64,000 nt of DNA from Spartobacteria bacterium (GCA_003134785.1 PLCN01000021.1:379784-443783), one strand, 5' to 3'. Shown: positions 16,028 to 34,934, numbered from the stretch's first letter. A program made the numbers and translations. The notes: a model not told the origin generated them from the sequence alone.

Positions 16028-16040
16028 GCGGCGGCCAATT

Positions 16041-17775: not shown

Positions 17776-18012
17776 CGGCGACGGCAAATGGACACACTGC
17801 TGTGGTCATTCGCCCGCGACGCTTCGGCCGAAGGGCTCGGTGGCAGAATAAGACTAGACTAAGGTCCAATACCCGACCGAAAGAACAGCCGACTAGAGTC
17901 GAAGTCGATATGAACCTGTCATGGTCTCATTGAGAACTCCCTTGTTGCCTTGTGCGGCCAAGATCGTGACCAGCGGCGAATCGCAAGGAAGCCCGGCCCA
18001 CTATTTGCATTC
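17776..18012. other. Intergenic stretch with no clear gene
   Basis: No coding signal is seen. It contains AGACTAAGGTCC at 17856-17867, whose inverse occurs at 35253-35264 near the other edge of the cargo. Confidence 0.4.
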
Positions 18013-18786
18013 GTGAATCCGAATCATCTCCTTCGCACTTTCAGGTTGCTTTGTGCGGTGCTTTGCCTCTCGGGCGGAGCGGCGCGGGCAGAAGACGTCG
18101 ACGCTTTGATTGCTAAAGGCGACCAATTCGACAAACAATTCCAAGCCAAAGAAGCGCTCGAAGTCTATCTGCCGGCGAACAAGCTCGAACCGAAGAATGT
18201 CTATCTTCTCGTCCGGATCGCGCGGCAATATCGCCACTTGATGAGCGACACGTCGTCGAAACAGGAAAAGCTGCGCCTTGGGAACATCTCGCTCAAATTC
18301 GCCGAGCGCGCCGCGACCCTCGCTCCGGACAATGCCGAAGCGCAACTCTCGCCGGCGATCAGCTACGGAAAAATGTCTCCCTACATGGGCAGCAGGGATC
18401 AGGTCAATGCCTCGCCTCGGATCAAGGCGGCGGTAGACCGCACCCTTCAGCTTGATCCGACCAACGACATCGCGTGGCACATTCTCGGACGCTGGAATCG
18501 CGTGCTGGCAAACATCAGCGTCGTGAAACGGCTTCTCGCCAAAGCGCTCTATGGCGACTTGCCGGTGACGACGAATGAAGCGGCGGAGAAATGTCTTTTA
18601 AAGGCCATCGCAATTAATCCCAATCGGCTCATGCACTACATCGAACTGGGCCGAGTCTATGCCCAGATGGGACGCAAAGAGGAGGCGCGGCAGTACATTC
18701 AGAAAGGGCTTGCGATGCCTAACAAAGACCACGATGACCCGGAGATGAAAGAGATCGGACAGCAGACGCTGCAAACGCTGAGATAG
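18013..18786 (+). CDS. Secreted TPR protein, RMDN-like
   Basis: This protein of about 257 residues starts at GTG with a signal peptide (LLRTFRLLCAVLCLSGGAARA, cut before EDVDAL). The mature part has TPR-like helical pairs: KGDQFDKQFQAKEALEVY, AERAATLAPDNAEAQLSPAI, LDPTNDIAWHILGRWNR and MHYIELGRVYAQMGRKEEA. The order and the central motif HILGRWN match the eukaryote-like regulator of microtubule dynamics (RMDN/FAM82) family, which has many bacterial members of unknown function. An upstream ATG at 17950 exists but would bury the signal peptide. It converges with the asparagine-synthase gene. Confidence 0.75.
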   Translation: MNPNHLLRTFRLLCAVLCLSGGAARAEDVDALIAKGDQFDKQFQAKEALEVYLPANKLEPKNVYLLVRIARQYRHLMSDTSSKQEKLRLGNISLKFAERAATLAPDNAEAQLSPAISYGKMSPYMGSRDQVNASPRIKAAVDRTLQLDPTNDIAWHILGRWNRVLANISVVKRLLAKALYGDLPVTTNEAAEKCLLKAIAINPNRLMHYIELGRVYAQMGRKEEARQYIQKGLAMPNKDHDDPEMKEIGQQTLQTLR

Positions 18787-18798: not shown

Positions 18799-20784
18799 CT
18801 ACGCTGTTGGCAAAGACCTTTCGGAGCCAGACCACTCAGGCAGATCTGCCAAACCACCACCCATGAATTGATGGTGCCAAAGCTGAGTGGCGACGACCGC
18901 GGTGAGTCCCATTTCCACCGAGAGCCGTGGCAGCGAATGCGGTCTTAGTTCGCGAAAACCTTTGCGCCAGCGCGTGACCTCTTTCAGATCAAAGTAACCG
19001 GTGCGGCGCAGCGAATCTTCGCTGAGAAGCTGTGCGACAAACGGCGGTTCTGGGTCCATATGAAAACTGTCCAGCGGCGCGCGAAAGATGACTTTGCCGC
19101 GGCGCGCGATCGACTTCGGAATCCAACGTTCCGCGAGCAGGCGGAGCAGGTACTTGTCTCGGAATCCACGCAGCTTCCAGCGCGGGTGTAGTTTTGCGGT
19201 GAAATCAAAGACCTCTTCATCCAGGAACGGGTAACGAACTTCGACCGACGAGTGCATGGAGACGCGGTCGCCTTTGGCCTGCAAGAGATGGCCCGCCAAC
19301 AGAACTCGCGCCGCGATCCAAATGCCGCGATTGAGCGGTGCCCAGCGTTTGGCTTTTTCGAGTGGAAATCCCAATTCGCCCCACGGATGGCTGTCGTTCA
19401 TGACTTCGCGCATCTGCTCGGAGTAGAAACGCAGCTTCGAAATCGCGAGCAGCCCGTAGGAATCGATCCAGGCATTTTGCCCCCCGATGGACGCCTCCAC
19501 GCGCTCGCGCCATTCCGGCGGAAAATGCGGCACTTTGTTCAAGCGTAGATAGCAGCGGCGCGCCAGGTCGCTCAGATTCACTCCCGGGACGGCGTCGAGA
19601 AATCCCATGAGCTTGGCCGCCTTGTACCATGGATAACCGACCAGCCATTCGTCGGCCCCTTCGCCGGTCAGCACGACCTTCTGGCCATTGGCATGAACGC
19701 GTTCGGCAAGTTTGAGCAGGGCGCCGCAAGATGTATCGATCACCGGCGCTTCAGCGGCTTCAATGAGCCTTGGATAACTTTCGAGCGCTTCGCGATCGCC
19801 GTACTCCTGGACAATCGGTGGCTTGGCCCCGATGTGCCGGGCGGAGAGACTTGCTGCACTCAGTTCGTCAAACTCCGGCGCATTCACCCGCACGGTATAA
19901 GTGTTGATCGCCGGACCTTTGAGACGGCAGGCCAGGGCGAGGATCATACTCGAATCCACACCACCGGAAAGATAGGAGCCGACTGGCACATCCGCGCGCA
20001 GCCGTTCTTCGACGGCCTGCAAGAGGAGCCGCTCGAATTCATCTACCAACGCACTCGGATCGTCTCCCCATTCCTCTTCACCCTGCGCCGGGAAATCCAT
20101 TTCCCAGTAGGAACGTTCCGTAATGACCGGACTCCTGCCCGAGTTTCCTGGCGCAATGCGCAGGCAGTGTCCCGGCGGCAAGAGTTGCACCCCTTCAAAA
20201 CAAGTCCGCGGGCCCGGGACCGCGGAAAATGTGAAGACGTGATCGAGCCCCTTGCGGTCGGGTCGCGGCGGAACCATTCCGGACGCCAGCAGACCCTTGA
20301 TTTCCGAAGCAAAGAGCAACCAGTCACCCTGCCGGCTCCAGAAAAGTGGCGCGATCCCGAAGCGGTCGCGGCCGAGATGGAGTTGTCGTTGTCGCTCATC
20401 CCACAAAGCGATGGCAAACTGCCCGCGCAGCCGCTCCCACATCCCTTCGTGGTGATCCTCCCAAAGGTGCGGAATGATTTCCGTATCACAATGCGTGCGG
20501 AAGCGATGCCCTTGCCGAACGAGTTCTTCACGCCGTTCGACGTAATCGAATAATTCGCCGTTGAAGACCACGAAGAGGCTGCGGTCTTCATTCGTCATGG
20601 GCTGTTGCCCATCGGCCAGATCGACAATACTCAGCCGTCGAGAAGCAAGTGAGATTCCCGGTTGTTCGAGAAAACCCTCTTCATCCGGACCGCGGTGAGT
20701 GATGGCGCGCGCCATCCGTTGCACCACACCTTCCGGCGCCGGGCGTTGCCCAACCAAATCGATTATCCCCGCGATGCCGCACAT
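18799..20784 (-). CDS. asnB: Glutamine-hydrolysing asparagine synthase-like amidotransferase
   Basis: This 661-residue protein starts MCGIAG, placing the class II glutaminase nucleophile at Cys2; the ATG six codons upstream would spoil this. The N-terminal Ntn domain has HRGPDEEG and VFNGELFDY. The C-terminal synthetase has the PP-loop SYLSGGVDSSM and VVLTGEGADEWL. It transfers glutamine-derived ammonia to a carboxylate activated by ATP. The divergent position next to a PKS gene suggests it may amidate the polyketide or a precursor rather than serve asparagine supply, but a housekeeping AsnB cannot be excluded. Catalytic motifs look intact. Confidence 0.88.
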   Translation of the reverse strand: MCGIAGIIDLVGQRPAPEGVVQRMARAITHRGPDEEGFLEQPGISLASRRLSIVDLADGQQPMTNEDRSLFVVFNGELFDYVERREELVRQGHRFRTHCDTEIIPHLWEDHHEGMWERLRGQFAIALWDERQRQLHLGRDRFGIAPLFWSRQGDWLLFASEIKGLLASGMVPPRPDRKGLDHVFTFSAVPGPRTCFEGVQLLPPGHCLRIAPGNSGRSPVITERSYWEMDFPAQGEEEWGDDPSALVDEFERLLLQAVEERLRADVPVGSYLSGGVDSSMILALACRLKGPAINTYTVRVNAPEFDELSAASLSARHIGAKPPIVQEYGDREALESYPRLIEAAEAPVIDTSCGALLKLAERVHANGQKVVLTGEGADEWLVGYPWYKAAKLMGFLDAVPGVNLSDLARRCYLRLNKVPHFPPEWRERVEASIGGQNAWIDSYGLLAISKLRFYSEQMREVMNDSHPWGELGFPLEKAKRWAPLNRGIWIAARVLLAGHLLQAKGDRVSMHSSVEVRYPFLDEEVFDFTAKLHPRWKLRGFRDKYLLRLLAERWIPKSIARRGKVIFRAPLDSFHMDPEPPFVAQLLSEDSLRRTGYFDLKEVTRWRKGFRELRPHSLPRLSVEMGLTAVVATQLWHHQFMGGGLADLPEWSGSERSLPTA

Positions 20785-20988: not shown

Positions 20989-23900
20989 ATGCTCACAGGC
21001 AGAGTTAAACAGTCCGCCCCGGCGGAGCAACTCACGGCCATGCCAAAAGAACGTATTGCAATTATTGGAGTCGGTTGCCGTTTTCCCGGCGGCGTGAGTT
21101 CGAAGGAATCCCTTTGGAAACTTCTCGTCGAAGGCCGGGAGGGCATCGTTGAGGTGCCGCCCGATCGCTGGAACGTGGAGCGATATTACGACGCCGAACC
21201 GGGCGTGGCCGGAAAATCCATCACCCGGCGCGGCGGATTTATTGACGCGATCGATCAATTCGATCCGCAGTTTTTTGGTATCTCGCCGCGGGAAGCTCCT
21301 TACGTGGATCCGCAACATCGGCTCCTGCTCGAGACCGCCTGGGAGGCGATCGAGGATGCCGGACTCGTGCTCGATTTCGAACGCGGAACCGATCTCGGAG
21401 TATTCGTTGGCATTTCGCATAACGATTACCAGGGAATTCAAAGCACGAGTTTTGATCATTTCACCATCGGCCCTCACACGCCGACCGGAAGCGCGCACAG
21501 CATCGCCGCCAACCGGATTTCCTATTGCTTGAATCTGCGCGGCCCGAGTGTCGCGATGGATACGGCCTGCTCCTCTGCGCTCACCGCTGTCCACGCGGCT
21601 TGCGAGCACATCCGGACCGGGCGCGGAGACGCCGCCCTGGCGGGAGGCGTCACCGTGATGATTACGCCCGGCGGGTTTATTGGATTTTCGCAGGCTGCGA
21701 TGCTCTCGCCTGAGGGCCGGTGCGCTGCATTCGACGCATCCGCCAGCGGATTTGTCCGTGGCGAAGGTGCAGGAATGGTGCTGCTCAAGCGACTTTCGCA
21801 GGCGATCGCGGATGGCGATCCGATTCAGGGCGTGATTTTGGGAACGTCGATCAATCAAGATGGACACACCAACGGCATTTCGTTGCCTAGCCCGGAGGCG
21901 CAAACACGACTGGTGCAAGACGCTTGCAAGGATGCTGGGATTGCGCCCGAAGAGATTGGCTTCGTCGAAGCCCACGGTACTGGCACGGCGGTTGGAGATC
22001 CGATTGAGGCGCATGCTCTCGCGGACGCTCTCTGCCGCAATCGATCCGCCGACACGCCACTCCCGATCGGCTCCATAAAAACTAATCTTGGCCATTTGGA
22101 AACCGCAGCGGGAATCGCAGGACTTCTCAAAGCGATGTTGGCTCTTAAGCACGGACAGATTCCGCCCAGTCTGCATTTTTCAACCCCGAATCCGCATATT
22201 GATTTTGCAAAGCTCAAGTTGCGCGTGCCGACCCAGCTCGAACCGTTCCCAAACGGGACGGCAGAGCGCATCGCTGGCGTCAACTCATTCGGATTCGGAG
22301 GAGCAAATGCGCACGTCATCCTTGCCGAACCTCCGCCGCGTCAGTCGGAAAAATCTTTTACCATTCCAAGCTGTCGGCCATGGCCGGTAATCCTTTCCGC
22401 GCGTTCGGAAGCATCGCTTCGGAATTCAGCCGCAAATCTTAGCGCGTGGGTTAAGGAACACGCCCATGCCAACGGCAGCTCGCCCATTCTGCCGGATCTT
22501 ACTTATACATTGGGCGCCCGGCGAAATCATCACCCGCATCGGTTAACTCTGGTGACTTCCGGTTGGGCCGAACTCACCGAAGAACTCGACGCGTTCGCGA
22601 AGAAAGAGGAAAGCCCGAAGATCCGCGCGGCTTTCACTGCCCGCCGAGAGCAGGCGCCGCGCATCGGTTTCATCATGAGTGGGCAGGGCCCGCAATGGTG
22701 GGGAATGGGTCGCGATTTGATGGAGCATGAGCCGGTGTTCCGCGAGGCGATTGAAAAGTGCGATGCTGCGCTCCATCCATGGGCGAGCTTCTCGCTGCTC
22801 GAAGAACTCGGCCGCTCCGAGGAAGTGTCCCAAATGCACCGGACGGAGATTGGACAGCCGTCCATCTTTGCCATGCAGGTGGCGCTCGCGGCGCTTTGGA
22901 AATCCTGGGGCGTTGAGCCTTCGGCCATTGTTGGTCATAGCGTGGGTGAGATCGCAGCTGCATGCATCGCCGGCATTTTTTCCGTCGAAGAAGCGGCCCG
23001 GATTGTTGCGCTTCGAGCGCGTCTCATGGAATCGTGCGGACGCGGTGAGGGAACGATGCTCGCCGCTGGGTTGCCCGAAGATGAAACTTTGGCTCTCATT
23101 GCGCGTCACGATCGAACGGTAACGATTTCCGCTTTCAACGGACCACGGTCGATCACACTTTCGGGCCCGCGCATTTCGCTCGAGGCGATGGCAGTCGAAC
23201 TCGAGGCGCAGGGCGCCTTTGCCCGACTCGTTAGGGTAGATCATCCGTTTCACCATCCGCTCATGCGACCGGCTTCAGAGGCATTGGAAGCTGAGCTCGC
23301 CGACATGAGGCCGCAGCCGGGCGCCATCCCATTCTTCAGCACGGTGACGGGGGAGCGTTGCGCTGGCGAATCGTGCGATGCCGCCTACTGGGCACGGGGC
23401 ATTCGCGAGCCGGTCCGTTTTGCTTCGGCGGTGGGCGCGCTCGCGGATTTCGGCGTGGACGTATGGCTGGAACTTAATGCGCATCCCGCGCTCGCGCACT
23501 CAACGCAGGAATGCCTAACGACACGTGGAACGAAAGCACCGGTAATCTCTTCGGTCCGCCGCGACCGCGAATTTGAGTCCATGCTCGAGTCGGCCATGGA
23601 TCTGCACGGCGCCGGTGTTCCGCTTGATTTTTCGGCGATGACGCCTTCGCGGCATCTTCTCTCGCTGCCCGCTTACGCATGGGAAAAGACCCGTTGGTGG
23701 AATGAAACAAGCGATTCTCGCGAAGGCCGGCTCGCACCGGGCGGACGCGGCCTGTTTGATGTCCGGCTGCCACGCGCGATGCCTACCTGGATCGTCAGGC
23801 TCGACTCCCGGCACATGGCCTTTTTGAAAGATCACAAGGTTGAAAACCACGTGATTTTTCCGGCAGCGGCATTCGTCGAGATGGCGCTGGAAGCAGGTGT

Positions 23901-26900
23901 GCAGCTGTTCGAGGGGCAACCGTTCGTCGTGGAGGATTTTGAAATTCGCAAGCCGCTCATCCTGCCGGATCCGCCGTCGGGCGTGCAGATCGAGTTCTCC
24001 TATTCGCCGAACGAGCGCACCTTTGCCATTCAAAGCCGTTTCGAGCAAAGCGTCACGTGGTCCCTCCACGTTGTCGGCTCGCTGCGTGGCGAGCGCACGG
24101 AATCTGCCTTTGCCTCTTCAAAATGGGAGCAACCTTTGAGCACTCAAACCGTCGCCGTCGACGGATTCTACCGTCACATGAGCGATCTGGGTTTGCGCTA
24201 TGGCGAGGAATTTCGACCCATTCGCGAACTGTCAGCCGGCGCCGGGCAATCGTCGGGGCAGGTAGTTTTGTCGGACGCGGTGTCTCCCCGCGCGGGTGAA
24301 TACGCTCTGCACCCGGTTCTCTTCGATGGAGCGTTGCAGGTATTCTCCGCTGGTGCCGCCACCGTTGAAGGACGTCAGGCCCGGATGAAACTCCCGGTCG
24401 GTTTCCGCCGCATTCTCTTTCTCGGTTCACCCGGATCCTCCAGCCGCGTGTGCGCAAAGGTGCGCGAGTTTGGCGACGATTTCCTCGAAGGCGACATCAC
24501 TCTTTATAATGCGGGAGGAAAACCTTGCGTGCTGGTGGATGGATTTCGGGCCATCAGCCTTTCCGGCGCGGGTCGCTCTGGCGCCCCTGGCGGCATTCGC
24601 GATTTGACGTATCACGTCGCCTGGCAACGCTTGCCTAACGAGTCGCTTAAAGCACCGCTCCCACCGCTCCCGCTGGCTCAATTAAAGGCGGCGGCACAAG
24701 GCGCCTTGGACTGTGTCTTCGCCGTTCGCGGTCCCTCCGAAATTGAGGCAGCGCTTTGCGCCGTTGACGATCTTGCCGCCTCGCAACTGACTCGCGGGCT
24801 GCGGGAAATGGCAGTGACTCCAAATATTCTCTTTGATGCAGCGACCCTGCACGTGGCGACACCGATGCGCCCCGTCTTTGAACGGTTGATGGCTGGTCTC
24901 GTTAGGCGCGGTTTGCTTCGGAAAAAAGGCGGACGATTTGGGCTGACGTCGGATTTTGCGCAGGCGGCAGATTCCGCCGACAAGGTTTTGCGCAACTACA
25001 TCGAGAAACATCCGGGACATCTTCCCGAAGCTCTTCTCTGCGTCGGCAACTGCACTGAGTTAGGATCGATTTTGCGCGGCGAAAAGGACGCTGTGCAGGT
25101 TTTGTTCTCTGGGATCGGCGCGGAGTTGCTCGATCACTTTTATGGCGACGGCCTCTTCACCAGTCACTGGCTCGCGGCCATCGCCGCAGCGGTGAGCACG
25201 GCCGCGCGAAGCCTGCCGGAAGGGCGCGGCCTGCGCATCTTGGAAATCGGCGCGGGAACCGGTGGATTGGCTTCACAAGTTTTACCGCTGCTCGAGCGTT
25301 GCTTGCATTCCTACACGTTTAGCGATGTCTCGGCCGCATTCTTTTCCGGCGCCGCGCAGAAGCTGGCGGCGTTTTCAGAGGTGGAATTTAAGATTTTCGA
25401 TCTCGAAAAACCTGGGGTTGAGCAGGAACTCGAACTGGGGACGTTCGACTTCATTATCGGCACCAATGTGCTGCACGCGGTCAAAGATGTGCGCGCCGCT
25501 TTGTGCAACTTGCATGTCCTGCTGGCACCGGGAGGCAGCCTCATCTTCATGGACACGGCGACGCCACAACTCTGGACGGAAACGGTTTTCGGCCTAACAA
25601 GTGGTTGGTGGCGGTTTACTGATCGCGATCTGCGACCAGAGCAACCATTACTCAAGAGAGCACAATGGGAAGCCGTGTTGCAGGAAACCGGTTTTGCTGA
25701 AACAGCTTCGTTGCCCGGTTTGATCGGTCCAACTGGCGGCGAAGGTCAGGTCGGCCTGCTCGCGCGTAAGTCGTATAAGGAAGAATCGGTCTTGAGCGAG
25801 ACCGAGACTCCGGGAGAGAAATCATGGCTCGTTTTCAAGGACACCTCAGGAGTGGGCGATGCGTTGATTTCGCGGCTGCGCGAGTTTGGCGCTGGATGTC
25901 GAGTCGTCGGGCGAGGAGAGAGTTTCGAGTTTGATGGCAACGATGCCTTTACTCTGCGACCGGGAACGCTGGAGGATTGGAAAAAACTCTTTGCGGCCTG
26001 CGCGGATCCGGTGCCTGAGCGGATCGTTTATCTTTGGAATCTTGAGGATGGAGCCGATATGGCGGCCAATCTCGACGCTTTGCTCCATCTTACGCAGGCG
26101 CTCGAATCCAGTCATCCGGCGGCGAAGGTTCGTCTTGATTTGGTTACGCGCAACGCGCAGCCGGCCGGCAACGATCTGCAACCGACCGCGGTCGCACAGG
26201 CCCCGAGCATTGGATTGATGCGCGTTATTTTGAACGAGCATTCCAACCTGCGTTGGCGCGCGATTGATCTGTCGCCGGAAGCTGATGCAGAATTGCTTTG
26301 GAGCGAAATAGTTCGCAAAAATGGCGAACGCGAAATCGCGTTGCGAGGTGAAGCTCGCTATGTGCTGCGACTCGATCGTGGTCGTCCAACCCGCGAACAG
26401 TGGCTCGACTCGTCGCTGCCGTTGCGTTTGGAGTCTCGCGAGCGCGGTCGTCTCGACACATTGCGCTTCTCTCCATTTGAACTGCCGCCGTGCGGACCGG
26501 GTCAGGTGCTGATCGAAGTGAAAGCGGCGGGAATCAATTTCCGCGACGTGCTCAAGGCATTGGCACTTTATCCGGGCGATGCTCCGGACGCGCGAATTTT
26601 TGGCGATGAAGTTGGCGGTATCGTTAAGGAAGTTGGCTCCGATGTCCGACACGTCGCTCCCGGAGATCGTGTGTTCGGTCTCGCCGTTTTTGGAATGGCG
26701 ACTCACGCAATCGCGCGCGCGGGCGACGTGCGACGGATTCCGGCCGATCTGACATTCGAGGCGGCAGCAACATTACCCGTCGTCTTCATGACTGCATGGC
26801 ATGCGCTGCGAAACGTCGCGCGATTGCGCGAGGGCGAGCGCGTTCTCGTGCACGCAGGCGCGGGTGGAGTTGGGATGGCTGCGATCCAGATCGCGCTGCA

Positions 26901-28668
26901 CCTCGGCGCGGAAGTCATCGCGACGGCGGGCAGCCCAAGTAAGCGTGCCCTTCTCAAGACGCTCGGAGTCGAACACGTGATCGACTCGCGCCGCGGCGAT
27001 TTTGCCGAGGCAGTGATGAAACTGACTGACGGCAAAGGAGTGGACGTAGTTTTGAACGCGCTTGCTGGGGAAGCGATCCCGATGGGTCTCTCCTGTCTCG
27101 CCGAATTCGGCCGCTTCATCGAGATCGGCAAACGGGACATTTACCAAAACGCGCGCATTCCGCTTCGGCCGCTTCGCAACAACGCGTCGTTCCACGTCGT
27201 GGCCATGGATGCGATTTTCCATGGTAACGAAGAATTGACTCGCCGGATGCTGGAGGAGATTTCCGGGTTGGTAGAAAAAGGCGCGTTGCGGCCGCTTCCC
27301 TATCGATCGTTTCCAGCCTCCCGGATCGATTCTGCTTTTCGTCTCATGTCGAGCGGAAAACATATCGGCAAAGTTGTAGTCGCATTCCCGACGGCTTTTG
27401 TTCCGCGGCGCGGTGAATTACCCGGCCCGGGATTCGAGGTAAAATCCGACGGATGCTATCTCATCACCGGCGCTTTCGGCGGATACGGCAAGGTGCTGGC
27501 TCGATGGTTGGTCGACGCCGGTGCGCGCCATCTTGTGCTCACGAGCCGCGGCGGCGCTTCGAATCCAGAAGCCGCTGAATTCGTAACAGAGCTACAGGAT
27601 CGCGGAGCGGAAGTGCGCGTCGTGTCCGCGGATATCAGTGTGCCTGACGACGTGAAGCGACTTTTTGCTGAAATTAGATCCTACGGACTGCCGCTGCGCG
27701 GTCTATTCCATCTCGCAATGGTGATTGATGATGCGCCGCTCGCGTCGCTCACTCCCGAGCGCATACGAACCGTTCTCGGACCAAAGGCACACGGCGCATG
27801 GCTGCTCCACGAAGCAACACAAGAAACGAAACTCGATTGCTTCGTGATGTTCTCTTCTGTCTCAAGCATTTTCGGCAATCCGGCGCAGGGAAATTACAGC
27901 GCAGCGAATGCGTTTCTCGACAGCCTCGCGCATCATCGTCAGGCGCTTGGCCTTTCTGCGCTTACCGTGAATTGGGGCGTCCTCGGCGGCGAAGGCTATG
28001 TGGCGCGTAACGAGCGTGTCGCCGATTTCCTTGCCCGGCAGGGAACAGTTGCAATTTCGCCCGGTGAAGCGATGGGGCTGCTTGAGTCGTTCCTTCGAGC
28101 GGGAAGTGCGCAAGCGATTTCGATCCGCGTCGATTGGAGTAAATGGCGCCAATTTTTTAGAAGCATGCAGGAGAATCCGCTTCTCGAGCGCATTTTCGCT
28201 GCGCTCGAGAATCAGGAATCAGTCGGCACGACGAGTGATTGGCGGAGTCGGATCGATGCGGCTTCGCCGGCTGAGAAACAGGCGGTGATCTGCCAGGCCG
28301 TGCGTGAAGCGGTTGGTTCCGTTCTGCGGGTCAAGCCCGACAGTTTGCGTGACGACCAGCCGCTGACGGATCTCGGCTTGGATTCGTTGATGGGAGTCGA
28401 GATCGAAACCTCGCTGGAAGCAGCGGTCGGCGTGGCCTTACCTCCAACGAGTTTAATGCGAGCACGGACCATCGGTCAGATCGCCGCCCTGATTGCCGGT
28501 CATCTCGGTGGCGCGACAACTGTCGCGGAATCCGCGCCGGTGACGGTGCAAGCGGAAGCGACCAGTGCAGTCGACCTCGATGCGATTTCCGACGAAGAAA
28601 TCGAACGTCTCCTCGGGCGTGAATCCGAATCCGAAGAGACTGAGGCGATCGAAGACGCGAAGCGTTAA
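20989..28668 (+). CDS. Fully reducing type I polyketide synthase (KS-AT-DH-cMT-ER-KR-ACP)
   Basis: This 2559-residue single-module synthase has KS Cys194 (DTACSSA), His329 (EAHGTGTAVGD) and His369 (KTNLGH); AT Ser651 (GHSVGE); DH His949 (HKVENHVIFP) with Asp1113 (HPVLFDGALQ); C-methyltransferase LEIGAGTGG at 1418-1426; ER NADPH loop VLVHAGAGGVG near 1952; KR loop near 2157 with Tyr2303 (NYSAAN); and ACP Ser2466 (LGLDSL). All reductive residues are present, so each cycle could give a saturated, optionally alpha-methylated chain. There is no loading module and no thioesterase, as in iterative fatty-acid-like PKSs. The KR has a DD pair (VIDDAPL) typical of B-type. Met at 21040 is an alternative start. 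Confidence 0.95.
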   Translation: MLTGRVKQSAPAEQLTAMPKERIAIIGVGCRFPGGVSSKESLWKLLVEGREGIVEVPPDRWNVERYYDAEPGVAGKSITRRGGFIDAIDQFDPQFFGISPREAPYVDPQHRLLLETAWEAIEDAGLVLDFERGTDLGVFVGISHNDYQGIQSTSFDHFTIGPHTPTGSAHSIAANRISYCLNLRGPSVAMDTACSSALTAVHAACEHIRTGRGDAALAGGVTVMITPGGFIGFSQAAMLSPEGRCAAFDASASGFVRGEGAGMVLLKRLSQAIADGDPIQGVILGTSINQDGHTNGISLPSPEAQTRLVQDACKDAGIAPEEIGFVEAHGTGTAVGDPIEAHALADALCRNRSADTPLPIGSIKTNLGHLETAAGIAGLLKAMLALKHGQIPPSLHFSTPNPHIDFAKLKLRVPTQLEPFPNGTAERIAGVNSFGFGGANAHVILAEPPPRQSEKSFTIPSCRPWPVILSARSEASLRNSAANLSAWVKEHAHANGSSPILPDLTYTLGARRNHHPHRLTLVTSGWAELTEELDAFAKKEESPKIRAAFTARREQAPRIGFIMSGQGPQWWGMGRDLMEHEPVFREAIEKCDAALHPWASFSLLEELGRSEEVSQMHRTEIGQPSIFAMQVALAALWKSWGVEPSAIVGHSVGEIAAACIAGIFSVEEAARIVALRARLMESCGRGEGTMLAAGLPEDETLALIARHDRTVTISAFNGPRSITLSGPRISLEAMAVELEAQGAFARLVRVDHPFHHPLMRPASEALEAELADMRPQPGAIPFFSTVTGERCAGESCDAAYWARGIREPVRFASAVGALADFGVDVWLELNAHPALAHSTQECLTTRGTKAPVISSVRRDREFESMLESAMDLHGAGVPLDFSAMTPSRHLLSLPAYAWEKTRWWNETSDSREGRLAPGGRGLFDVRLPRAMPTWIVRLDSRHMAFLKDHKVENHVIFPAAAFVEMALEAGVQLFEGQPFVVEDFEIRKPLILPDPPSGVQIEFSYSPNERTFAIQSRFEQSVTWSLHVVGSLRGERTESAFASSKWEQPLSTQTVAVDGFYRHMSDLGLRYGEEFRPIRELSAGAGQSSGQVVLSDAVSPRAGEYALHPVLFDGALQVFSAGAATVEGRQARMKLPVGFRRILFLGSPGSSSRVCAKVREFGDDFLEGDITLYNAGGKPCVLVDGFRAISLSGAGRSGAPGGIRDLTYHVAWQRLPNESLKAPLPPLPLAQLKAAAQGALDCVFAVRGPSEIEAALCAVDDLAASQLTRGLREMAVTPNILFDAATLHVATPMRPVFERLMAGLVRRGLLRKKGGRFGLTSDFAQAADSADKVLRNYIEKHPGHLPEALLCVGNCTELGSILRGEKDAVQVLFSGIGAELLDHFYGDGLFTSHWLAAIAAAVSTAARSLPEGRGLRILEIGAGTGGLASQVLPLLERCLHSYTFSDVSAAFFSGAAQKLAAFSEVEFKIFDLEKPGVEQELELGTFDFIIGTNVLHAVKDVRAALCNLHVLLAPGGSLIFMDTATPQLWTETVFGLTSGWWRFTDRDLRPEQPLLKRAQWEAVLQETGFAETASLPGLIGPTGGEGQVGLLARKSYKEESVLSETETPGEKSWLVFKDTSGVGDALISRLREFGAGCRVVGRGESFEFDGNDAFTLRPGTLEDWKKLFAACADPVPERIVYLWNLEDGADMAANLDALLHLTQALESSHPAAKVRLDLVTRNAQPAGNDLQPTAVAQAPSIGLMRVILNEHSNLRWRAIDLSPEADAELLWSEIVRKNGEREIALRGEARYVLRLDRGRPTREQWLDSSLPLRLESRERGRLDTLRFSPFELPPCGPGQVLIEVKAAGINFRDVLKALALYPGDAPDARIFGDEVGGIVKEVGSDVRHVAPGDRVFGLAVFGMATHAIARAGDVRRIPADLTFEAAATLPVVFMTAWHALRNVARLREGERVLVHAGAGGVGMAAIQIALHLGAEVIATAGSPSKRALLKTLGVEHVIDSRRGDFAEAVMKLTDGKGVDVVLNALAGEAIPMGLSCLAEFGRFIEIGKRDIYQNARIPLRPLRNNASFHVVAMDAIFHGNEELTRRMLEEISGLVEKGALRPLPYRSFPASRIDSAFRLMSSGKHIGKVVVAFPTAFVPRRGELPGPGFEVKSDGCYLITGAFGGYGKVLARWLVDAGARHLVLTSRGGASNPEAAEFVTELQDRGAEVRVVSADISVPDDVKRLFAEIRSYGLPLRGLFHLAMVIDDAPLASLTPERIRTVLGPKAHGAWLLHEATQETKLDCFVMFSSVSSIFGNPAQGNYSAANAFLDSLAHHRQALGLSALTVNWGVLGGEGYVARNERVADFLARQGTVAISPGEAMGLLESFLRAGSAQAISIRVDWSKWRQFFRSMQENPLLERIFAALENQESVGTTSDWRSRIDAASPAEKQAVICQAVREAVGSVLRVKPDSLRDDQPLTDLGLDSLMGVEIETSLEAAVGVALPPTSLMRARTIGQIAALIAGHLGGATTVAESAPVTVQAEATSAVDLDAISDEEIERLLGRESESEETEAIEDAKR

Positions 28669-28692
28669 GCACAACCTCATGCGACAATCGCG

Positions 28693-30039
28693 ATGCCGGC
28701 TGATCAACGCACTCGTCTCAAACAATGGCTCGACAGCGGTGAAGCACAGCTTCATCCGCTGACTCTCCCACAACGGGAACTTTGGGAAGTCTCGCCGGTA
28801 CCGGTCGAGGACAGCGCGAATCACATCTGCTGTCTCATCGAGGTGCAAGGACTCCTAACCGAACGCGAGTGTCGCGCCGCGATCCAGTTAGTCGTCGAGC
28901 GCGAGGAAGTTTTGCGTCTCTCGGTCCTTCCGGGTCGAGAGCGTCCCCTGCAGATGATCCGCAAAAATTGCGGGATCAATTTTGATCTTCGCGACGTTGC
29001 ACCCGGCGATGCACGGCCGGGAGCAATCGAAGAATTGGCGGCGGAGATTTTTCGCACGCCATTCGACCTCGTGCAGGGGCCGCTCTACCGCGTGGTGGAT
29101 CTGCGCCGCACGGCGAACGATCACGTGCTGGTCTTCGTGATTCATCACGCCATTGCCGACGGTTGGAGCTTGGGAATCTTCGTGGAGGAACTCTTTGCCG
29201 CTTATCTCCAAGCCATCGCGGGATCATCCGAGGCTTTGCCGCCGGTACCGCAAACTTATGCGGCGTGGGGCGCGACCGAGCGCGCTTTTTGGAAACCGGA
29301 GATGTTGGAACAGCGCATCAAGTTTTGGAAAACCAAGTTAGCCGGTTCACGTCGGCTGTGGAATCCTCCGATCACGCCTGGCCCGCCCAAGCGATGGCTT
29401 TCCGCAATTCCTGCATCTCTGACTAACGAGACGCGCGAACTGGCCCGTCAGACTAGCGTCACATTCTTCAGTGTGCTGTTTGGGGCTTTCCAACTTGCGT
29501 TCTCCGAATGGAGCGGATTCGATGATCTGGTAGTGGGAACGCCGGTCGCCAATCGCACCAAGCAAACTGCGCGAGAAACTATGGGATACTACGCGGGTAT
29601 AGTACCTCTGCGCGGGCAGATCGATCGCTCGCGCATTGCGGCCGATCATTTACGAGCGGGACATCAGCAAACGATTGACTCGTTTGCCAACGCCATCCCT
29701 TTCGTTGAGTTGGCGCGCGCGCTCGACGAGCAATCGGAACCGGGATACAATCCGCTTTTCGAGATACGCTTTGCTTTGCAGAATCATCCCATGCCGGAGA
29801 TTTCGCTGCCGAATCTTTCCGCACGTCTGAGCATGCGTTCGACGGGCACCGCGCGTTTCCAGCTTGCGTGCGAAATCACTGAAGTCTGCGAAGGCTTGGA
29901 AGTTGCCTGGCTTTTTCGCGAGAATTTGTTTTGCCGACGTGACATTGAAAGTCTCGATGGCATATTTCAACGAGTTCTGGCGGGCATCTGCCGCTCGCCG
30001 GAGAGCCGAATCTCTGAAGTGCTGAACCGACCTCAATGA
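28693..30039 (+). CDS. Free-standing condensation-domain protein
   Basis: This 448-residue protein is a single NRPS-type condensation domain with the active motif HHAIADG (H151, H152, D156) and the downstream VVGTPVANR-like latch. No adenylation or carrier domain is attached. It starts 24 bases after the PKS stop and overlaps the desaturase by four bases. Stand-alone condensation domains can release acyl-ACP chains onto an amine or alcohol, which would explain the missing thioesterase in the PKS. The acceptor is unknown; a PapA-like ester-forming role is as likely as amide formation. Confidence 0.88.
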   Translation: MPADQRTRLKQWLDSGEAQLHPLTLPQRELWEVSPVPVEDSANHICCLIEVQGLLTERECRAAIQLVVEREEVLRLSVLPGRERPLQMIRKNCGINFDLRDVAPGDARPGAIEELAAEIFRTPFDLVQGPLYRVVDLRRTANDHVLVFVIHHAIADGWSLGIFVEELFAAYLQAIAGSSEALPPVPQTYAAWGATERAFWKPEMLEQRIKFWKTKLAGSRRLWNPPITPGPPKRWLSAIPASLTNETRELARQTSVTFFSVLFGAFQLAFSEWSGFDDLVVGTPVANRTKQTARETMGYYAGIVPLRGQIDRSRIAADHLRAGHQQTIDSFANAIPFVELARALDEQSEPGYNPLFEIRFALQNHPMPEISLPNLSARLSMRSTGTARFQLACEITEVCEGLEVAWLFRENLFCRRDIESLDGIFQRVLAGICRSPESRISEVLNRPQ

Positions 30040-30983
30040 ACGAAACCTCCACCAACGAAGACTTCAGCGAGATGCATGAACCACACTGGGTCTTGCAGGG
30101 TGCGTTTCAGCTTCTTGTCTTCGGTTTAGTTTTCACTGAATTGATGCTCGCTGTAACTGTGCACCGCGGTTTGATCTGGCTGGCGGTGCCGCTCGTGCTT
30201 GTTGTCAGCCATTTGATGCACGGCACTCTCATCGGCCTGCATGAAGCGGCTCACGGGCTGCTCCGGAAAAATCGCAACTTTAATGCGTTTGATGGGGTCG
30301 TGATCGCTACGTTGAGTTTGATGAGCTTCAGTCTCTATCGCGTCGTTCATCAAACGCATCATGCCTATCTCGCCACGGAGCGAGATTGCGAATTCTGGCC
30401 ACTATCCCACACGACTACGCCCCGTTGGAGGAGGTGTCTGGCTGCATTTTTCGAGCTAAACTTCGGATTGTTTTATTCCCCGTTCCTTTTCCTGCGCGCC
30501 TTTTTATGTTCTCCTTCGCCGGTCCGAAGCAAACGCGTTCGCCAGCGCATTTGGGCGGAATTGGCGCTGACAATTGTGGCGTGGACTTTCGTCCTCTGGG
30601 CAATCGCGACATTCGGTCTGTGGAAATATTTCATTTGGATGTATCTCGCACCCGCGGTTTTGGCGGCTAATTTGCAGAGTTGGCGCAAGTACATCGAGCA
30701 CGTGGGGATGACGGGCGACACGGTAAATGGCTCAACGCGGAGCATCGTCGCGAAAAGCTGGCTGGGGCGCCTGGTTGCTTTCTCGCTGCTGCACGAACCG
30801 TTTCATGGAGTTCATCATCAACGGGCCGGCCTGCCCCACTCCGTTTTGCCCCAGCACGTGGAAGAATTGCAGCCGAAAAAACCGGGCGAGCGGACACCGT
30901 ACCCAAGTTATCGTTACGCCCTGGTTGAACTGATACGCTGCCTGGCCGATCCGCGCGTCGGGCCGCAATGGCAGACGATTTGA
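30036..30983 (+). CDS. Membrane fatty acid desaturase/hydroxylase
   Basis: This 315-residue integral membrane di-iron enzyme has the three histidine boxes HEAAH (69-73), HQTHH (105-109) and HGVHH near residue 265, with hydrophobic segments at about 23-62, 88-100 and 185-215. It would desaturate or hydroxylate an acyl chain. The four-base overlap with the condensation gene suggests that it tailors the polyketide or a co-substrate lipid. Whether it uses free, ACP-bound or lipid-bound chains cannot be told. Confidence 0.87.
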   Translation: MNETSTNEDFSEMHEPHWVLQGAFQLLVFGLVFTELMLAVTVHRGLIWLAVPLVLVVSHLMHGTLIGLHEAAHGLLRKNRNFNAFDGVVIATLSLMSFSLYRVVHQTHHAYLATERDCEFWPLSHTTTPRWRRCLAAFFELNFGLFYSPFLFLRAFLCSPSPVRSKRVRQRIWAELALTIVAWTFVLWAIATFGLWKYFIWMYLAPAVLAANLQSWRKYIEHVGMTGDTVNGSTRSIVAKSWLGRLVAFSLLHEPFHGVHHQRAGLPHSVLPQHVEELQPKKPGERTPYPSYRYALVELIRCLADPRVGPQWQTI

Positions 30984-31020: not shown

Positions 31021-31716
31021 GTGATTCAGCCCTCTGCCAGCGATGCCTCTCTGCTTGAGGCAAAGACTCTTACCCGCGAATTCGACGAAGGGCAGGTCAA
31101 GGCACTGCGCGGAGTCGATTTTTCCATCAAAGAGGGCGAGTTCGTTGCCATTACTGGACCGAGTGGATGCGGTAAATCGACCTTGCTGCAATTACTCGGC
31201 GCCTTGGATCGACCGACATCCGGAACTCTTCTCTACCGCGGAATATCGCTGCCGGATCATCCCAATCCCGCAGCCTACCGCGCTCGCGAGGTCGGATTTA
31301 TTTTCCAGGCCTTTCACCTTCTGCCGACTTTCACCGCGGCCGAGAACGTGCAGATTCCGATGTTCGAAATCGATCGCTCACCTTCTGAGCGCCGCGAGCG
31401 CGCCTTCGAATTGCTGAAGCTCGTTGGCCTTGAGAATCGGCTCGATCATTTCCCTTCCAAGCTTTCCGGGGGCGAGCGCCAGCGCGTCGCCATCGCGCGC
31501 AGTCTGGCTAACGGGCCATCTCTGCTCCTGGCTGATGAACCGACCGGTAATCTCGATAGCGAAAATGCACATTCAGTTCTGGAACTCCTTATCCGCCTGC
31601 AACAGGAGCAGAGTCGCACCATGGTGCTCGTCACTCATGACCCGACGATTGCCGAGCGGGCAGGAAGAATCCTTCGCATGAAAGACGGTCAAATCGTCTC
31701 GGACGGTAAGCCATGA
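31021..31716 (+). CDS. LolD/MacB-type ABC transporter ATPase
   Basis: This 231-residue ATPase starts at GTG. Walker A is GPSGCGKST, the Q-loop is FQAFHLLPT, the signature is [13 protein letters not shown], Walker B is [14 protein letters not shown], and the switch His is in VLVTHD. The family powers MacB/FtsX-like permeases that move lipids or lipoproteins from the inner membrane. It overlaps the permease gene (ATGA). Neighbours suggest that the cargo is the lipid product of the PKS locus rather than general lipoproteins. Confidence 0.92.
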
Positions 31717-32831
31717 CCTTCTTCGCCGTCGTCTTCCGTGGTCTTTGGCGTCGCCCGTTGCGCACGGGATTAACTCTCGCGGGGATTTCCATCGGCATCG
31801 CCGCAGTTGTAGCGCTTGTTGGGATGTCCCGTGGCTTTGAGAAAGGCTGGCAGGTCGGATTGAAGGCCCGCGGGACCGACATCGTCGTCAGTAACAAGAG
31901 CGGCTCGCTCACGCCGAAACCGTTCGATGCGTCCGTCCGCGATAGGATTGCGACGCTTCCGCGCATCGCCGCGACCTGTAATCTTCTCGTGCAAGTGACG
32001 AGCGTGGAGGATTCGGACTTGATGATTCTTTCCGCTCGCGAGTGGGGAGGATTTGCCTGGAACAATCTCGAACTTGTCTCCGGACGCATGCCGCGCGACG
32101 CCACGGAAGAAACTGTGGTTTTAGGTCAGACGGCAGCAGAGATACTCAGGAAAAAAGTGGGCGATCCGATCCAGATTGAAACAAAAGAATTAAAGGTCGT
32201 CGGAATCGTAAAAGGTGGGGCGCTCGTCGAAGATGGATCGGTCATTCTTTCCCTGCCGCTTTTGCAAGGAATCACCGGCTCCCCCAACCAGATCAACGCC
32301 ATCGATATTCGCGCAACGCCCGGGACGAACGAGCAACAACTCGCAGAACTCACGCGCCAAATCCAGCAGCTTGTCCCGGAAGTGCGGGCTGTGACGGTAA
32401 GCGAACACTTGAGTCACGCTCAAGGATTTCGCCTCGTTAAAGCCATGAGTTGGGGCACATCTCTCCTGGCGATACTTGTCGGTGTTCTCGGCGTGATGAA
32501 CACCATGCTCATGACCGTCTTCGAGCGTACTCATGAAATTTGCGTGCTGCTTGCAGTCGGCTGGACGCGCGGACGCATCATGCGGATGATTCTTTACGAA
32601 TCTGCGCTGCTTGGTCTTTTCGGCGGTGTCGTCGGGGTGGCTATTGGTGCGATCGGCGTGAAGGTGCTAAGTGAGGCGCCGGCCATTCGCGGACTTCTGC
32701 AACCCGATCTCAGCCTTCCATTGCTCGGACTTTCCGTCGTCATCGCGGTTGCGGTTGGAATTATCAGCGGCCTTTATCCTGCCTGGCGCAGTTCACGACT
32801 AATGCCGAGCCTTGCTTTGCAAGCAGGCTGA
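31713..32831 (+). CDS. MacB/FtsX-type ABC transporter permease
   Basis: This 372-residue protein has one N-terminal membrane helix (TGLTLAGISIGIAAVVALVG), a large periplasmic domain (about residues 45-240) and three C-terminal helices, including LLAILVGVLGVMNTMLM and LLGLFGGVVGVAIGAIGV. The stretch MTVFERTHEICVLLAVGWTR is the usual FtsX-family cytoplasmic loop. It pairs with the preceding ATPase. Mechanotransmission-type permeases of this class extract substrate from the outer leaflet of the inner membrane, consistent with handing it to the LolA-like protein encoded next. Confidence 0.9.
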   Translation: MTFFAVVFRGLWRRPLRTGLTLAGISIGIAAVVALVGMSRGFEKGWQVGLKARGTDIVVSNKSGSLTPKPFDASVRDRIATLPRIAATCNLLVQVTSVEDSDLMILSAREWGGFAWNNLELVSGRMPRDATEETVVLGQTAAEILRKKVGDPIQIETKELKVVGIVKGGALVEDGSVILSLPLLQGITGSPNQINAIDIRATPGTNEQQLAELTRQIQQLVPEVRAVTVSEHLSHAQGFRLVKAMSWGTSLLAILVGVLGVMNTMLMTVFERTHEICVLLAVGWTRGRIMRMILYESALLGLFGGVVGVAIGAIGVKVLSEAPAIRGLLQPDLSLPLLGLSVVIAVAVGIISGLYPAWRSSRLMPSLALQAG

Positions 32832-32864: not shown

Positions 32865-33638
32865 ATGAAACTCAGCTTCCCATGCGCCGTTGCCGCAGCG
32901 CTCTCCATTATTTCCGTGCACGCCGCGGAGCCGGCACCGCCGGCAATGTCCGCCGCGGAACTTGCTGGTCGGATGGACGCCGTTAGTCAAGGTAACGCCT
33001 TGATTCGCACCAAGCTCGAGGTGCGATCAGGCGAGGGAACCAAGCGTGTCCTCCAGCTCCAGATCAAGCAGCACCGGACGAAAACGAGCACCGATCTTGT
33101 TTACCAAGTGCTTTGGCCTAACGAGCATAAAGGCGAGGCTGTGATTTTGCACCAGACTCAAGGTGCGTCGAAAGGCTCGATCATCGTTCCGCAGCAACCG
33201 GTTCGCACGATTAAATCCTCGCAAATGGACGATGGGTTATTCGACAGCGATCTCTCCTATCAGGACGCGGTTGAGAATTTCTTCGCCTGGAAAAAACAGG
33301 CCGTCGTTGGTGAGGAAATGATTAATAACGTGAACTGCCAGATTCTCGAATCGAAGCCGGACAGTTCTTCCGTGTCCATTTACGCCAAAGTGCGCAGCTG
33401 GATTGATCCTCACCGTTTTGTTCCGATGCGGATCGAGAAATATTCATCCTCTGGAGAACTCGTCCGCCGAATCGATATCACTCGCGTCGCTCGCGACGAA
33501 AAAGATCACCCGATTCCAGCCAATCTCACTGTCCACGGACCGCGAAAGAACAGCGTCACGGAATTCAATGGCGCGCGGATCGACCAGGGCGTGAGTTTTA
33601 CCGACGCCGATTTCACGCCGGAAGGTATTTCGAAATAG
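32865..33638 (+). CDS. LolA-like periplasmic lipid/lipoprotein-sorting protein
   Basis: This 257-residue protein has a signal peptide (MKLSFPCAVAAALSIISVHA) and a LolA/outer-membrane-lipoprotein-sorting fold of beta strands: LQLQIKQHRTK, TDLVYQVLWPNEHKGEAVI, then DLSYQDAVENFFAW and MRIEKYSSSGELVRRID. These proteins shield acyl chains during passage through the periplasm. It follows the permease by 33 bases and closes the rightward operon. It is more like the specialised carriers encoded beside lipid exporters than the housekeeping LolA. Confidence 0.83.
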   Translation: MKLSFPCAVAAALSIISVHAAEPAPPAMSAAELAGRMDAVSQGNALIRTKLEVRSGEGTKRVLQLQIKQHRTKTSTDLVYQVLWPNEHKGEAVILHQTQGASKGSIIVPQQPVRTIKSSQMDDGLFDSDLSYQDAVENFFAWKKQAVVGEEMINNVNCQILESKPDSSSVSIYAKVRSWIDPHRFVPMRIEKYSSSGELVRRIDITRVARDEKDHPIPANLTVHGPRKNSVTEFNGARIDQGVSFTDADFTPEGISK

Positions 33639-33647: not shown

Positions 33648-34934
33648 TTACTTTTTTACAGCGTTTTCGACGAGCCGCCCCGCGTTGAGCAGGTCCGCCT
33701 CGGCCAGGCGCGGCCCAATCAATTGCAGGCTCGTCGGGGGAGTCTTCGCGCCGCGCAGGGGCACGGGCACCGCCAGCGCCGGGTTGCCCGCAAAATTGAC
33801 CGCGACCGTATTTTGCACCTGAAGGAGGTGCGCTTCCATGATGCCTATTCTCAAGTTGAGCAGCGGCAATCCGGGCGTTGTTTTTTGAAGGGTTGGCAAA
33901 GCGATGAGGTCCACCTTCTCGAAAACTTTGCTCAGCGTTCGCTGCCACGCACTCCGCCTGGCCAATGCGCTGCGGTAACCGGTAGTATAGTTTATCTGGC
34001 CGTACTGAATTACAGACTTGGTTCGAGCTGCCACGCCTGGTGCGAATTCAAATCGTCCGTCACTGATCCATGCACCCGCTGCCGCAACGGTAGTGCCGTC
34101 CTTCTTCGCCTGCTCAAATTTGTCGCTCAGGCTGTCGTCCAGCTCGACAACTTGGAATCCCGTTTTGGCGAGCGCGTCGTCAATCGCCTGATCGATTCTT
34201 GGATCAGTCCCTTTCAGCTTGAGGCGTCCGACCCGGATGCTTTGCGCGGTTGGCTTTGCTGTCTTTGCGATCGCATATTTCGCCGCAAAACCATCTTGAA
34301 GAAGATCCATCCCCTGAACGGTGTGATCGATGTCTTTCCCCATCGGGCCCACGGTGTCGAGATGAGGCTCAACCGGGTAAACACCTTCGATCGGAATCAA
34401 ACCGTACGTTGTCTTCAGGCCAACGATACCGCAACAAGCGGCCGGCACGCGGTTCGAGCCAGCCGTGTCCGTGCCGAAAGCGATGTCCGCCATTCCGGAT
34501 GCCAACGCGACGGCGTTTCCCGATGAAGATCCGCCCGGAATCAGATTCCGCTTCAACGGATTCACGGGCGTCCCGAAATATTCATTCATGCCGGAAGGCG
34601 AGATCGCGAATTCGGTCATGTTTGTTTTACCGACTATCTGCACCCTCCGCCGGCGCGCGATTGCCAGACACGGGGCATCCTTTTTCGCGGGCTTGTGGGT
34701 TTGGGAAAGGATCGCTGAACCGGCGGTTGTAACTACGCCCTTGATATCAATGTTATCCTTAACCGCGAGCCGGAGTTCCTTGCGATTCGGATCTGGCGGC
34801 CAGTAGTCGATGAAGGCGCGGTTGCCGGGTAGGACCTTGTTGAAGGGCGGCAAAATTGAGCATCCGCTGCATGCGAGGAGTGAAGCCAGCACAATCGGCA
34901 ACCATCTAAAGCCAATGCGGCCGCATTGTTTCAT
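33648..34934 (-). CDS. Lipoprotein amidase-signature hydrolase
   Basis: This 428-residue amidase-signature enzyme has Lys in AVKDNIDIKG, the Gly/Ser loop GGSSSGNAVA and the nucleophile region FGTDTAGSNRVPA, so the Ser-Ser-Lys triad looks complete. The start at 34934 gives MKQCGRIGFRWLPIVLASLL followed by ACSGC, a lipoprotein signal, so it is probably membrane-anchored in the periplasm. It is convergent with the PKS operon, nine bases after the LolA-like stop. It could hydrolyse or form an amide in the product, linking it to the asparagine-synthase-like and condensation enzymes. That link is inference. Confidence 0.83.
   Translation of the reverse strand: MKQCGRIGFRWLPIVLASLLACSGCSILPPFNKVLPGNRAFIDYWPPDPNRKELRLAVKDNIDIKGVVTTAGSAILSQTHKPAKKDAPCLAIARRRRVQIVGKTNMTEFAISPSGMNEYFGTPVNPLKRNLIPGGSSSGNAVALASGMADIAFGTDTAGSNRVPAACCGIVGLKTTYGLIPIEGVYPVEPHLDTVGPMGKDIDHTVQGMDLLQDGFAAKYAIAKTAKPTAQSIRVGRLKLKGTDPRIDQAIDDALAKTGFQVVELDDSLSDKFEQAKKDGTTVAAAGAWISDGRFEFAPGVAARTKSVIQYGQINYTTGYRSALARRSAWQRTLSKVFEKVDLIALPTLQKTTPGLPLLNLRIGIMEAHLLQVQNTVAVNFAGNPALAVPVPLRGAKTPPTSLQLIGPRLAEADLLNAGRLVENAVKK

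What the first reader, a model, noticed from the sequence alone, without database searches (positions are those of the whole stretch)
20989..30983. Thioesterase-less, fully reducing methylating PKS with stand-alone condensation release and desaturase
A single KS-AT-DH-cMT-ER-KR-ACP protein, with all active residues, is followed by a free condensation domain and a His-box desaturase in one overlapping operon. The set predicts a methyl-branched, desaturated acyl chain joined to an unknown amine or alcohol, possibly a new membrane lipid.
Basis: partly seen in the sequence, partly recalled or inferred. Interest (0 to 1): 0.8.

Follow-up and report, generated by a model that had tools for sequence, protein, structure and literature searches.

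The report
Conserved polyketide-lipid synthesis and export cluster

Summary
20989-28668 encodes one KS-AT-DH-cMT-ER-KR-ACP protein without a thioesterase; 28693-30039 a free-standing condensation (C) domain; 30036-30983 a three-His-box FA_desaturase. Three further same-strand genes follow: a LolD-like ATPase, a MacB/LolC-like permease and a LolA-like secreted protein. Divergent AsnB and TPR genes flank the PKS, and a lipoprotein amidase is linked.

In 20 relatives PKS-C-desaturase are contiguous; the exporter follows intact in 15. Catalytic motifs are conserved (19 PKS, 22 C). Ten relatives with the stand-alone C domain have no other C-domain match, so it need not feed an NRPS and probably ends the chain on a free acceptor. 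AT motifs indicate malonyl, so branches would come from the cMT.

The core genes' distance matrices agree with each other, not with rpoB; the window's copy lies between duplicated tRNA-Thr genes beside integrase and relaxase genes. The cluster appears horizontally transferred.

Most likely product: an exported methyl-branched lipoamide (inferred). Analogues: MAS/PapA, OaaC, VibH, zeamine Zmn18-21. Product, acceptor, desaturase chemistry and "membrane lipid" are unproven. Known parts, new combination.

The parts
20989..28668 (+). Type I PKS, KS-AT-DH-cMT-ER-KR-ACP, 2559 aa, no TE; conserved acidic C-terminal tail motif (VDLDAISDEEIERLLG)
   Evidence: Pfam; catalytic motifs conserved in 19 orthologues; tail; best solved relative MAS
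28693..30039 (+). Stand-alone condensation domain, HHAIADG, 448 aa: proposed chain-release enzyme
   Evidence: PF00668 202.8 bits; motif conserved in 22; Foldseek matches NRPS C domains
30036..30983 (+). Membrane FA_desaturase-family protein (desaturase or hydroxylase), three His boxes, 315 aa
   Evidence: PF00487 107 bits; His boxes conserved in 24
31021..31716 (+). ABC ATPase, LolD/MacB-like (below LolD equivalog cut-off)
   Evidence: downstream in intact order in 15 of 20 loci
31713..32831 (+). MacB_PCD/FtsX permease (LolC/E-like)
   Evidence: 4-bp overlap with the ATPase
32865..33638 (+). LolA-like protein with N-terminal signal-like stretch (PF17131)
   Evidence: 83.8 bits; N-termini of orthologues
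18799..20784 (-). AsnB-type glutamine amidotransferase, divergent from the PKS; true start probably the MCGIAG methionine (ORF opens at 20802)
   Evidence: TIGR01536 407.5 bits, cut-off 267.1; orthologues of 73% identity or more only in genomes holding cluster genes
17950..18786 (+). TPR protein with N-terminal signal-like stretch
   Evidence: next to AsnB in most relatives
33648..34997 (-). Amidase-signature hydrolase with lipobox-like N-terminus (probable lipoprotein); linked to the cluster but placed at its other end, beside TPR, in most relatives
   Evidence: PF01425; Ser-cisSer-Lys motifs in 15
17361..17433 (+). tRNA-Thr(TGT), left border of the segment carrying the cluster
   Evidence: 88-nt repeat shared with 35841-35928 at 91%, including about 60 identical bases
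35856..35929 (+). second tRNA-Thr(TGT), right border
35303..35600 (-). remnants of a coupling-protein gene (35303-35441) and an integrase N-terminus (35445-35600) at the right edge of the cluster segment

Best explanation
A conserved, horizontally moving synthesis-and-export cluster. Shown by sequence: one KS-AT-DH-cMT-ER-KR-ACP protein, a free C domain, a desaturase-family protein, a Lol/MacB-type ABC pair with a LolA-like protein, and a linked AsnB, TPR protein and amidase, most of them inherited together. Inferred mechanism: after activation of its ACP by a phosphopantetheinyl transferase encoded elsewhere, the PKS works iteratively, using malonyl units, methylating some alpha-carbons with its own cMT and reducing fully. 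The C protein docks on the ACP and transfers the finished acyl chain to a free small molecule, most likely an amine, giving a lipoamide and freeing the enzyme without a thioesterase. The desaturase-family protein introduces a double bond or hydroxyl; AsnB adds or supplies an amide group. The ABC ATPase, permease and LolA-like protein take the product from the inner membrane across the periplasm; the lipoprotein amidase may trim it outside.
For: Domain content and order; catalytic motifs conserved in all families. PKS-C-DES contiguous in 20/20 loci, exporter in intact order in 15/20, short gaps or 4-bp overlaps. Ten genomes with this C domain have no other C-domain match, so the acceptor there is not a C-containing NRPS. 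AsnB orthologues of 73% identity or more occur only in genomes holding cluster genes, then a drop to 40% or less. AT: hPFH where methylmalonyl ATs have YASH, GHSV where they have GHSQ. cMT closest to CurJ C-MT, keeping GTNVLHA. Distance matrices of PKS, C, DES, AsnB, ABC, PERM, LolA and TPR correlate with each other (r 0.51-0.78), not with rpoB (about 0). PPTase genes in the genome. Better LolC/E matches exist elsewhere in the genome, so this exporter is additional. Precedents: Zmn18-Zmn19-Zmn20-Zmn21 (PKS, stand-alone C proposed to form an amide, ABC, permease; PMC3547906), OaaC (PMC13142362).
Against: No product, acceptor or expression data. The C domain has the canonical HHxxxDG, not the motif usual in fatty-acid-amide C domains, so the OaaC analogy is functional only. 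Three relatives (G002, G007, G025) keep PKS-C-DES but lost the exporter there, and three (G077, G090, VFJQ) lack AsnB beside the PKS, so neither is needed in every form. The amidase does not share the PKS distance pattern (r 0.10). The desaturase model was poor and has no solved homologue.
Confidence: 0.5

Rival explanations
1. The C protein esterifies a hydroxyl (a diol, sugar or lipid head group), making a branched-chain ester lipid of the outer membrane, as PapA proteins do with MAS-type PKS products.
For: MAS is the closest solved relative of the PKS; C-domain-superfamily enzymes release MAS/Pks products as esters (established knowledge of PapA5); the LolA-like protein and Lol-type pair suit outer-membrane delivery.
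Against: The C protein resembles NRPS C domains and PapA5 only weakly (19 bits). AsnB and amidase genes point to amide chemistry. No glycosyltransferase, diol-forming or phospholipid gene is in the conserved set.
Confidence: 0.25
2. The PKS makes a lipid starter that the C domain hands to the NRPS/PKS encoded elsewhere in the genome (contig C22), giving a lipopeptide.
For: This genome has NRPS C-domain proteins and a KS protein on contig C22.
Against: Ten genomes with the same C domain show no other C-domain match; the cluster moves as a unit with its own exporter.
Confidence: 0.07
3. The product is a secreted small-molecule weapon or signal (zeamine-like or fatty-acid-amide-like), and the ABC/permease/LolA-like set is an export or self-protection pump rather than a route to the outer membrane.
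For: The zeamine cluster has PKS, free C, ABC ATPase and permease in the same order (PMC3547906); the permease is MacB-like; patchy distribution and mobile context are usual for bioactive-compound clusters.
Against: MacB-type pumps usually work with MacA/TolC-type partners, which are not part of the conserved set; a LolA-like carrier is.
Confidence: 0.3
4. AsnB, TPR and amidase are only neighbours, and the working unit is PKS-C-DES alone.
For: The amidase distance pattern does not match the PKS and its position changes; AsnB is not found beside the PKS in G077, G090 and VFJQ.
Against: AsnB and TPR match the PKS pattern best of all (r 0.76 and 0.78), and AsnB orthologues are absent where no cluster gene is found.
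Confidence: 0.15

Closest known systems
Mycocerosic acid synthase (MAS) with PapA-type release (Mycobacterium)
   Same: Single-module, fully reducing, thioesterase-less PKS; release by a separate protein of the C-domain superfamily; MAS is the best solved relative.
   Different: MAS uses methylmalonyl-CoA; here the AT motifs are of malonyl type and there is a cMT domain. The C protein is NRPS-like, not PapA-like.
Fungal highly reducing PKS of LovB type
   Same: KS-AT-DH-cMT-ER-KR-ACP order followed by a C domain; LovB and its C domain appear among the matches.
   Different: Here the ER keeps its motifs and the C domain is a separate protein closer to bacterial NRPS C domains; bacterial export genes follow.
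Zeamine genes zmn18-zmn21 (Serratia plymuthica, PMC3547906)
   Same: PKS, free-standing C domain proposed to form an amide, ABC ATPase, permease, in that order.
   Different: Zmn18 has KS, AT, KR and ACP only and follows NRPS genes; Zmn19 has PHxxxDG; no LolA-like gene or desaturase is reported.
OaaC and related stand-alone fatty-acid-amide C domains (PMC13142362); VibH
   Same: Free C domain taking an ACP-bound acyl chain and a free amine; release without thioesterase.
   Different: Those chains come from fatty acids through an A domain; their usual motif is (D/H)HxxxDS, here HHxxxDG.
Sup-type mono-modular PKSs of sponge symbionts (PMC4245539)
   Same: Small mono-modular PKSs proposed to make mid-chain-branched fatty acids.
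   Different: No Sup sequence was available to compare; no C/desaturase/Lol set is mentioned in the papers read.
Deinococcus plasmid PKS cluster (NZ_CP092189, L086)
   Same: One PKS of similar length directly followed by a separate Condensation-family gene.
   Different: PKS 38% identical, no cMT Pfam match at 1e-10, C protein only 288 aa; neighbours are SagB, thioester reductase, aminotransferase and radical SAM genes.

Membership tests
Iterative highly reducing type I PKS | KS, AT, DH, ER, KR, ACP on one protein with active residues | tested here: met
Iterative highly reducing type I PKS | Same module used repeatedly | not testable with these tools
   inferred from one module and no second PKS in the cluster
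MAS-type PKS | Methylmalonyl-specific AT (YASH, GHSQG) | tested here: not met
   hPFH and GHSVGE in 19 orthologues
MAS-type PKS | No C-methyltransferase domain | tested here: not met
   Methyltransf_12 61 bits; CurJ C-MT E 4.6e-45
LovB-type PKS-C | C domain fused behind the ACP | tested here: not met
   separate ORF in the window and all relatives
Sup-type PKS | Sequence membership of the sup clade | not testable with these tools
   no Sup sequences held
Stand-alone amide-forming C domain | PF00668 domain alone, HHxxxDG | tested here: met
   fold match
Stand-alone amide-forming C domain | Transfers acyl-ACP to a free amine | not testable with these tools
   needs assay; 10 genomes have no other C-domain match
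Fatty-acid-amide C clade (OaaC) | (D/H)HxxxD[S/A] motif (usual, not universal: G in 17%) | tested here: not met
   HHaiADG in the window and conserved as ADG in 22; clade motif from PMC13142362
Canonical LolCDE | LolD and LolC/E equivalog scores | tested here: not met
   242 vs 307.75 and 58.6 vs 362.45 bits; better LolC/E matches on C9 and C25
LolA-like carrier (PF17131) | Pfam gathering score | tested here: met
   83.8 vs 30 bits
Fatty-acid desaturase superfamily (PF00487) | Gathering score and three His boxes | tested here: met
Fatty-acid desaturase superfamily (PF00487) | Desaturation rather than hydroxylation | not testable with these tools
   weak hits to a hydroxylase and a ketolase; poor model
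AsnB glutamine amidotransferase (TIGR01536) | Curated cut-off and MCG N-terminus | tested here: met
   407.5 vs 267.1 bits; MCGIAG in 16 aligned sequences

The most novel reading that the evidence does not exclude
A Lol-type route specialised for a polyketide lipid: a lipoamide made by a methylating iterative PKS and a free C domain is extracted by a dedicated LolCD-like pair and carried by a LolA-like protein to the outer membrane, as a mobile envelope-lipid system spread among Verrucomicrobiota.
Probability: 0.25. Interest if true: 0.75.

Novelty: new variant of a known kind. Interest (0 to 1): 0.5.

Why it matters
The named relatives are Spartobacteria, Chthoniobacter and other Verrucomicrobia MAGs; few natural products of this phylum are known (own knowledge). 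A recurrent cluster with clear enzyme logic and its own exporter is a compact target: a few genes could be expressed to find a new lipid class, and they would test whether a Lol-like shuttle can carry a lipid rather than a lipoprotein. If the product is only one more secreted acyl amide, the finding is useful but ordinary.

Tried and rejected
AlphaFold model of the desaturase: pLDDT 49.7, not used. The C model (pLDDT 60, four sequences) was used only to confirm the fold. A solved homologue of the desaturase: none, even with a 14-sequence profile. Plasmid collection for outside relatives: only generic C domains at about 32% identity or less and PKSs under 40%. The one genome-contig scan found four loci, all Verrucomicrobiota; other phyla were not scanned. 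Fieseler 2007 on sup clusters is not held. Literature searches found no paper on this cluster. Simple promoter/terminator scan of the AsnB-PKS gap gave nothing. I considered that the C protein serves the NRPS on contig C22 and rejected it because ten relatives lack any other C-domain match.

Full report
WHAT IS THERE. The window lies in a 4.39-Mb genome of the Verrucomicrobiota: the four named relatives are Spartobacteria, Chthoniobacter and other Verrucomicrobia MAGs. The three ORFs of the finding exist at the stated coordinates. The 2559-aa protein carries KS, AT, DH, methyltransferase, ER, KR and ACP domains and no thioesterase. Next come a 448-aa protein that is a condensation domain and little else, and a 315-aa FA_desaturase-family membrane protein. 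The gap between PKS and C is 24 bp; C and desaturase overlap by 4 bp.

THE OPERON IS LONGER. The same strand continues with an ABC ATPase (31021-31716; best LolD, below its cut-off), a MacB_PCD/FtsX permease (31713-32831) and a LolA-like protein (PF17131) with an N-terminal signal-like stretch (32865-33638). Upstream and divergent is an AsnB-type amidotransferase above the TIGR01536 cut-off, then a TPR protein; an amidase-signature hydrolase with a lipobox-like N-terminus lies at 33648-34997.

CONSERVATION. A search of 98 relatives with the C protein gave 15 genomes including this one with orthologues at 44-100% identity and E below 1e-100, then a drop to ordinary NRPS C domains at about 22-32%. 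A sample of 288 genomes of the phylum added four from another family of the class. In 20 loci read by tblastn, PKS-C-desaturase are contiguous in every one; the ABC, permease and LolA-like genes follow in intact order in 15, are broken in one (L004), rearranged in one (L046) and lost or remnant in three (L029, L030, L031). The amidase-TPR-AsnB block precedes the PKS in most. Gaps are short, with 4-bp overlaps recurring. AsnB orthologues of 73% identity or more occur only in genomes that hold cluster genes, with nothing between 73% and about 40%. Two loci look like deletion products: L048 has amidase-TPR-desaturase and L052 amidase-TPR-half desaturase-ABC-permease-LolA, both without PKS, C and AsnB.

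CATALYTIC RESIDUES. Across 19 PKSs the KS Cys/His/His, AT GHSVGE, DH His...Pro and Asp, cMT motif I and GTNVxHA, ER NADPH motif, KR Ser/Tyr/Asn and ACP DSL motifs are kept; 22 C proteins keep HHxxxDG; 24 desaturases keep three His boxes; AsnB keeps MCGIAG; the amidase keeps its Lys and GGSSSG motifs. The AT reads hPFH and GHSVGE where methylmalonyl-specific ATs read YASH and GHSQGE in the alignments; an AFH ending is taken as malonyl type (PMC3908369). The cMT aligns best with the CurJ C-methyltransferase. The PKS ends in a variable linker and a conserved acidic motif, VDLDALSDEEIDRLLG-like, which resembles a short docking motif; this is inference, since the C protein has no room for the N-terminal beta-hairpin docking domain described for Bamb_5915 (PMC9113145).

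MECHANISM. Shown: the gene set, its conservation, the residues. Inferred: iterative malonyl extension with SAM methylation; ACP activation by a PPTase encoded elsewhere (two PF01648 matches); release by the C protein onto a free acceptor. The release step rests on four points: no thioesterase; a free C domain in every locus; ten relatives (G003, G005, G010, G025, G029, G037, G077, G080, G087, G090) with this C domain and no other C-domain match (several are draft genomes of 84-96% completeness); and precedents for stand-alone C domains taking carrier-bound acyl groups to free amines (OaaC, PMC13142362; VibH and Zmn19, PMC3547906). The zeamine genes zmn18-21 even share the order PKS, free C, ABC, permease. 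Amide is preferred over ester because AsnB and an amidase accompany the cluster, but this is circumstantial. Whether the FA_desaturase-family protein desaturates or hydroxylates cannot be told. Export is inferred from the ABC/permease/LolA-like genes; the genome has better LolC/E matches elsewhere, so this pair is additional.

EVOLUTION AND MOBILITY. Distance matrices of PKS against C, DES, AsnB, ABC, permease, LolA-like and TPR correlate (r 0.51-0.78, permutation p 0.002), but not against rpoB (r about 0, nine or ten genomes) or the amidase (r 0.10). G029, another genus, has rpoB 93% but PKS 88% and AsnB 94% identical; same-genus G002, G005 and G007 have rpoB 98-99% but PKS 67-70%. In the window the cluster lies between two tRNA-Thr genes with an 88-nt repeat. 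To the left are an integrase, a TrwC relaxase and a coupling-protein gene; at the right edge of the cluster segment are remnants of the same coupling protein and of an integrase N-terminus, and sequence just after the left tRNA is repeated at 202-338. The simplest reading is that the cluster arrived on an element related to the one on the left, now decayed. The segment's mobility today is untested.

COMPARISON AND VERDICT. It works like MAS/PapA (single-module PKS plus separate acyltransferase) but fails MAS membership (malonyl AT, cMT present). It shares the domain order of LovB but not the fusion. It fails the usual motif of the OaaC clade. It scores below the Lol cut-offs. I found no description of this cluster in the papers searched. 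I file it as a new variant of a known kind: known enzyme types in a recurrent combination not described in the papers searched. Interest 0.5: real, widespread and testable, but the product is unknown and each step has precedent.

Noticed in passing
window 9151-17147: Integrative mobile element genes: coupling protein (9151-10560), ParA-like (10910-11629), TrwC relaxase (12166-15063), tyrosine integrase (16041-17147) beside tRNA-Thr; RES-domain and KAP NTPase genes nearby.
   Followed up: partly
window 35303-35600, 202-338 and 17451-17587: Remnants of coupling protein and integrase at the right edge of the PKS segment, and an 88%-identical stretch repeated behind the left tRNA, suggest two related elements lying in tandem at tRNA-Thr.
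   Followed up: yes
L052 (G016:C13) and L048 (G019:C11): Second or relic copies of the cluster that lost PKS, C and AsnB but kept flanking genes; in G016 the main copy has broken ABC/permease genes while the relic copy has intact ones.
   Followed up: partly
G000 contig C22, about 162557-176002: A separate NRPS/PKS locus with C domains, a KS and a PPTase match.
   Followed up: no
window 20989-28668, last 50 codons: Conserved acidic C-terminal PKS motif (LSDEEIDRLLG-like) after a variable linker; possible docking motif.
   Followed up: partly
L027 12791 and L028 4038: Extra ORF (179-223 aa) between desaturase and ABC genes in the two closest relatives, not in the window.
   Followed up: no
window 47386-47667 and 48713-48994: 282-nt direct repeat pair, 73% identical.
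   Followed up: no
L086 (Deinococcus sp. KNUC1210 plasmid): A similar-length PKS followed directly by a shortened Condensation-family gene, with SagB, thioester reductase, aminotransferase and radical SAM genes.
   Followed up: partly
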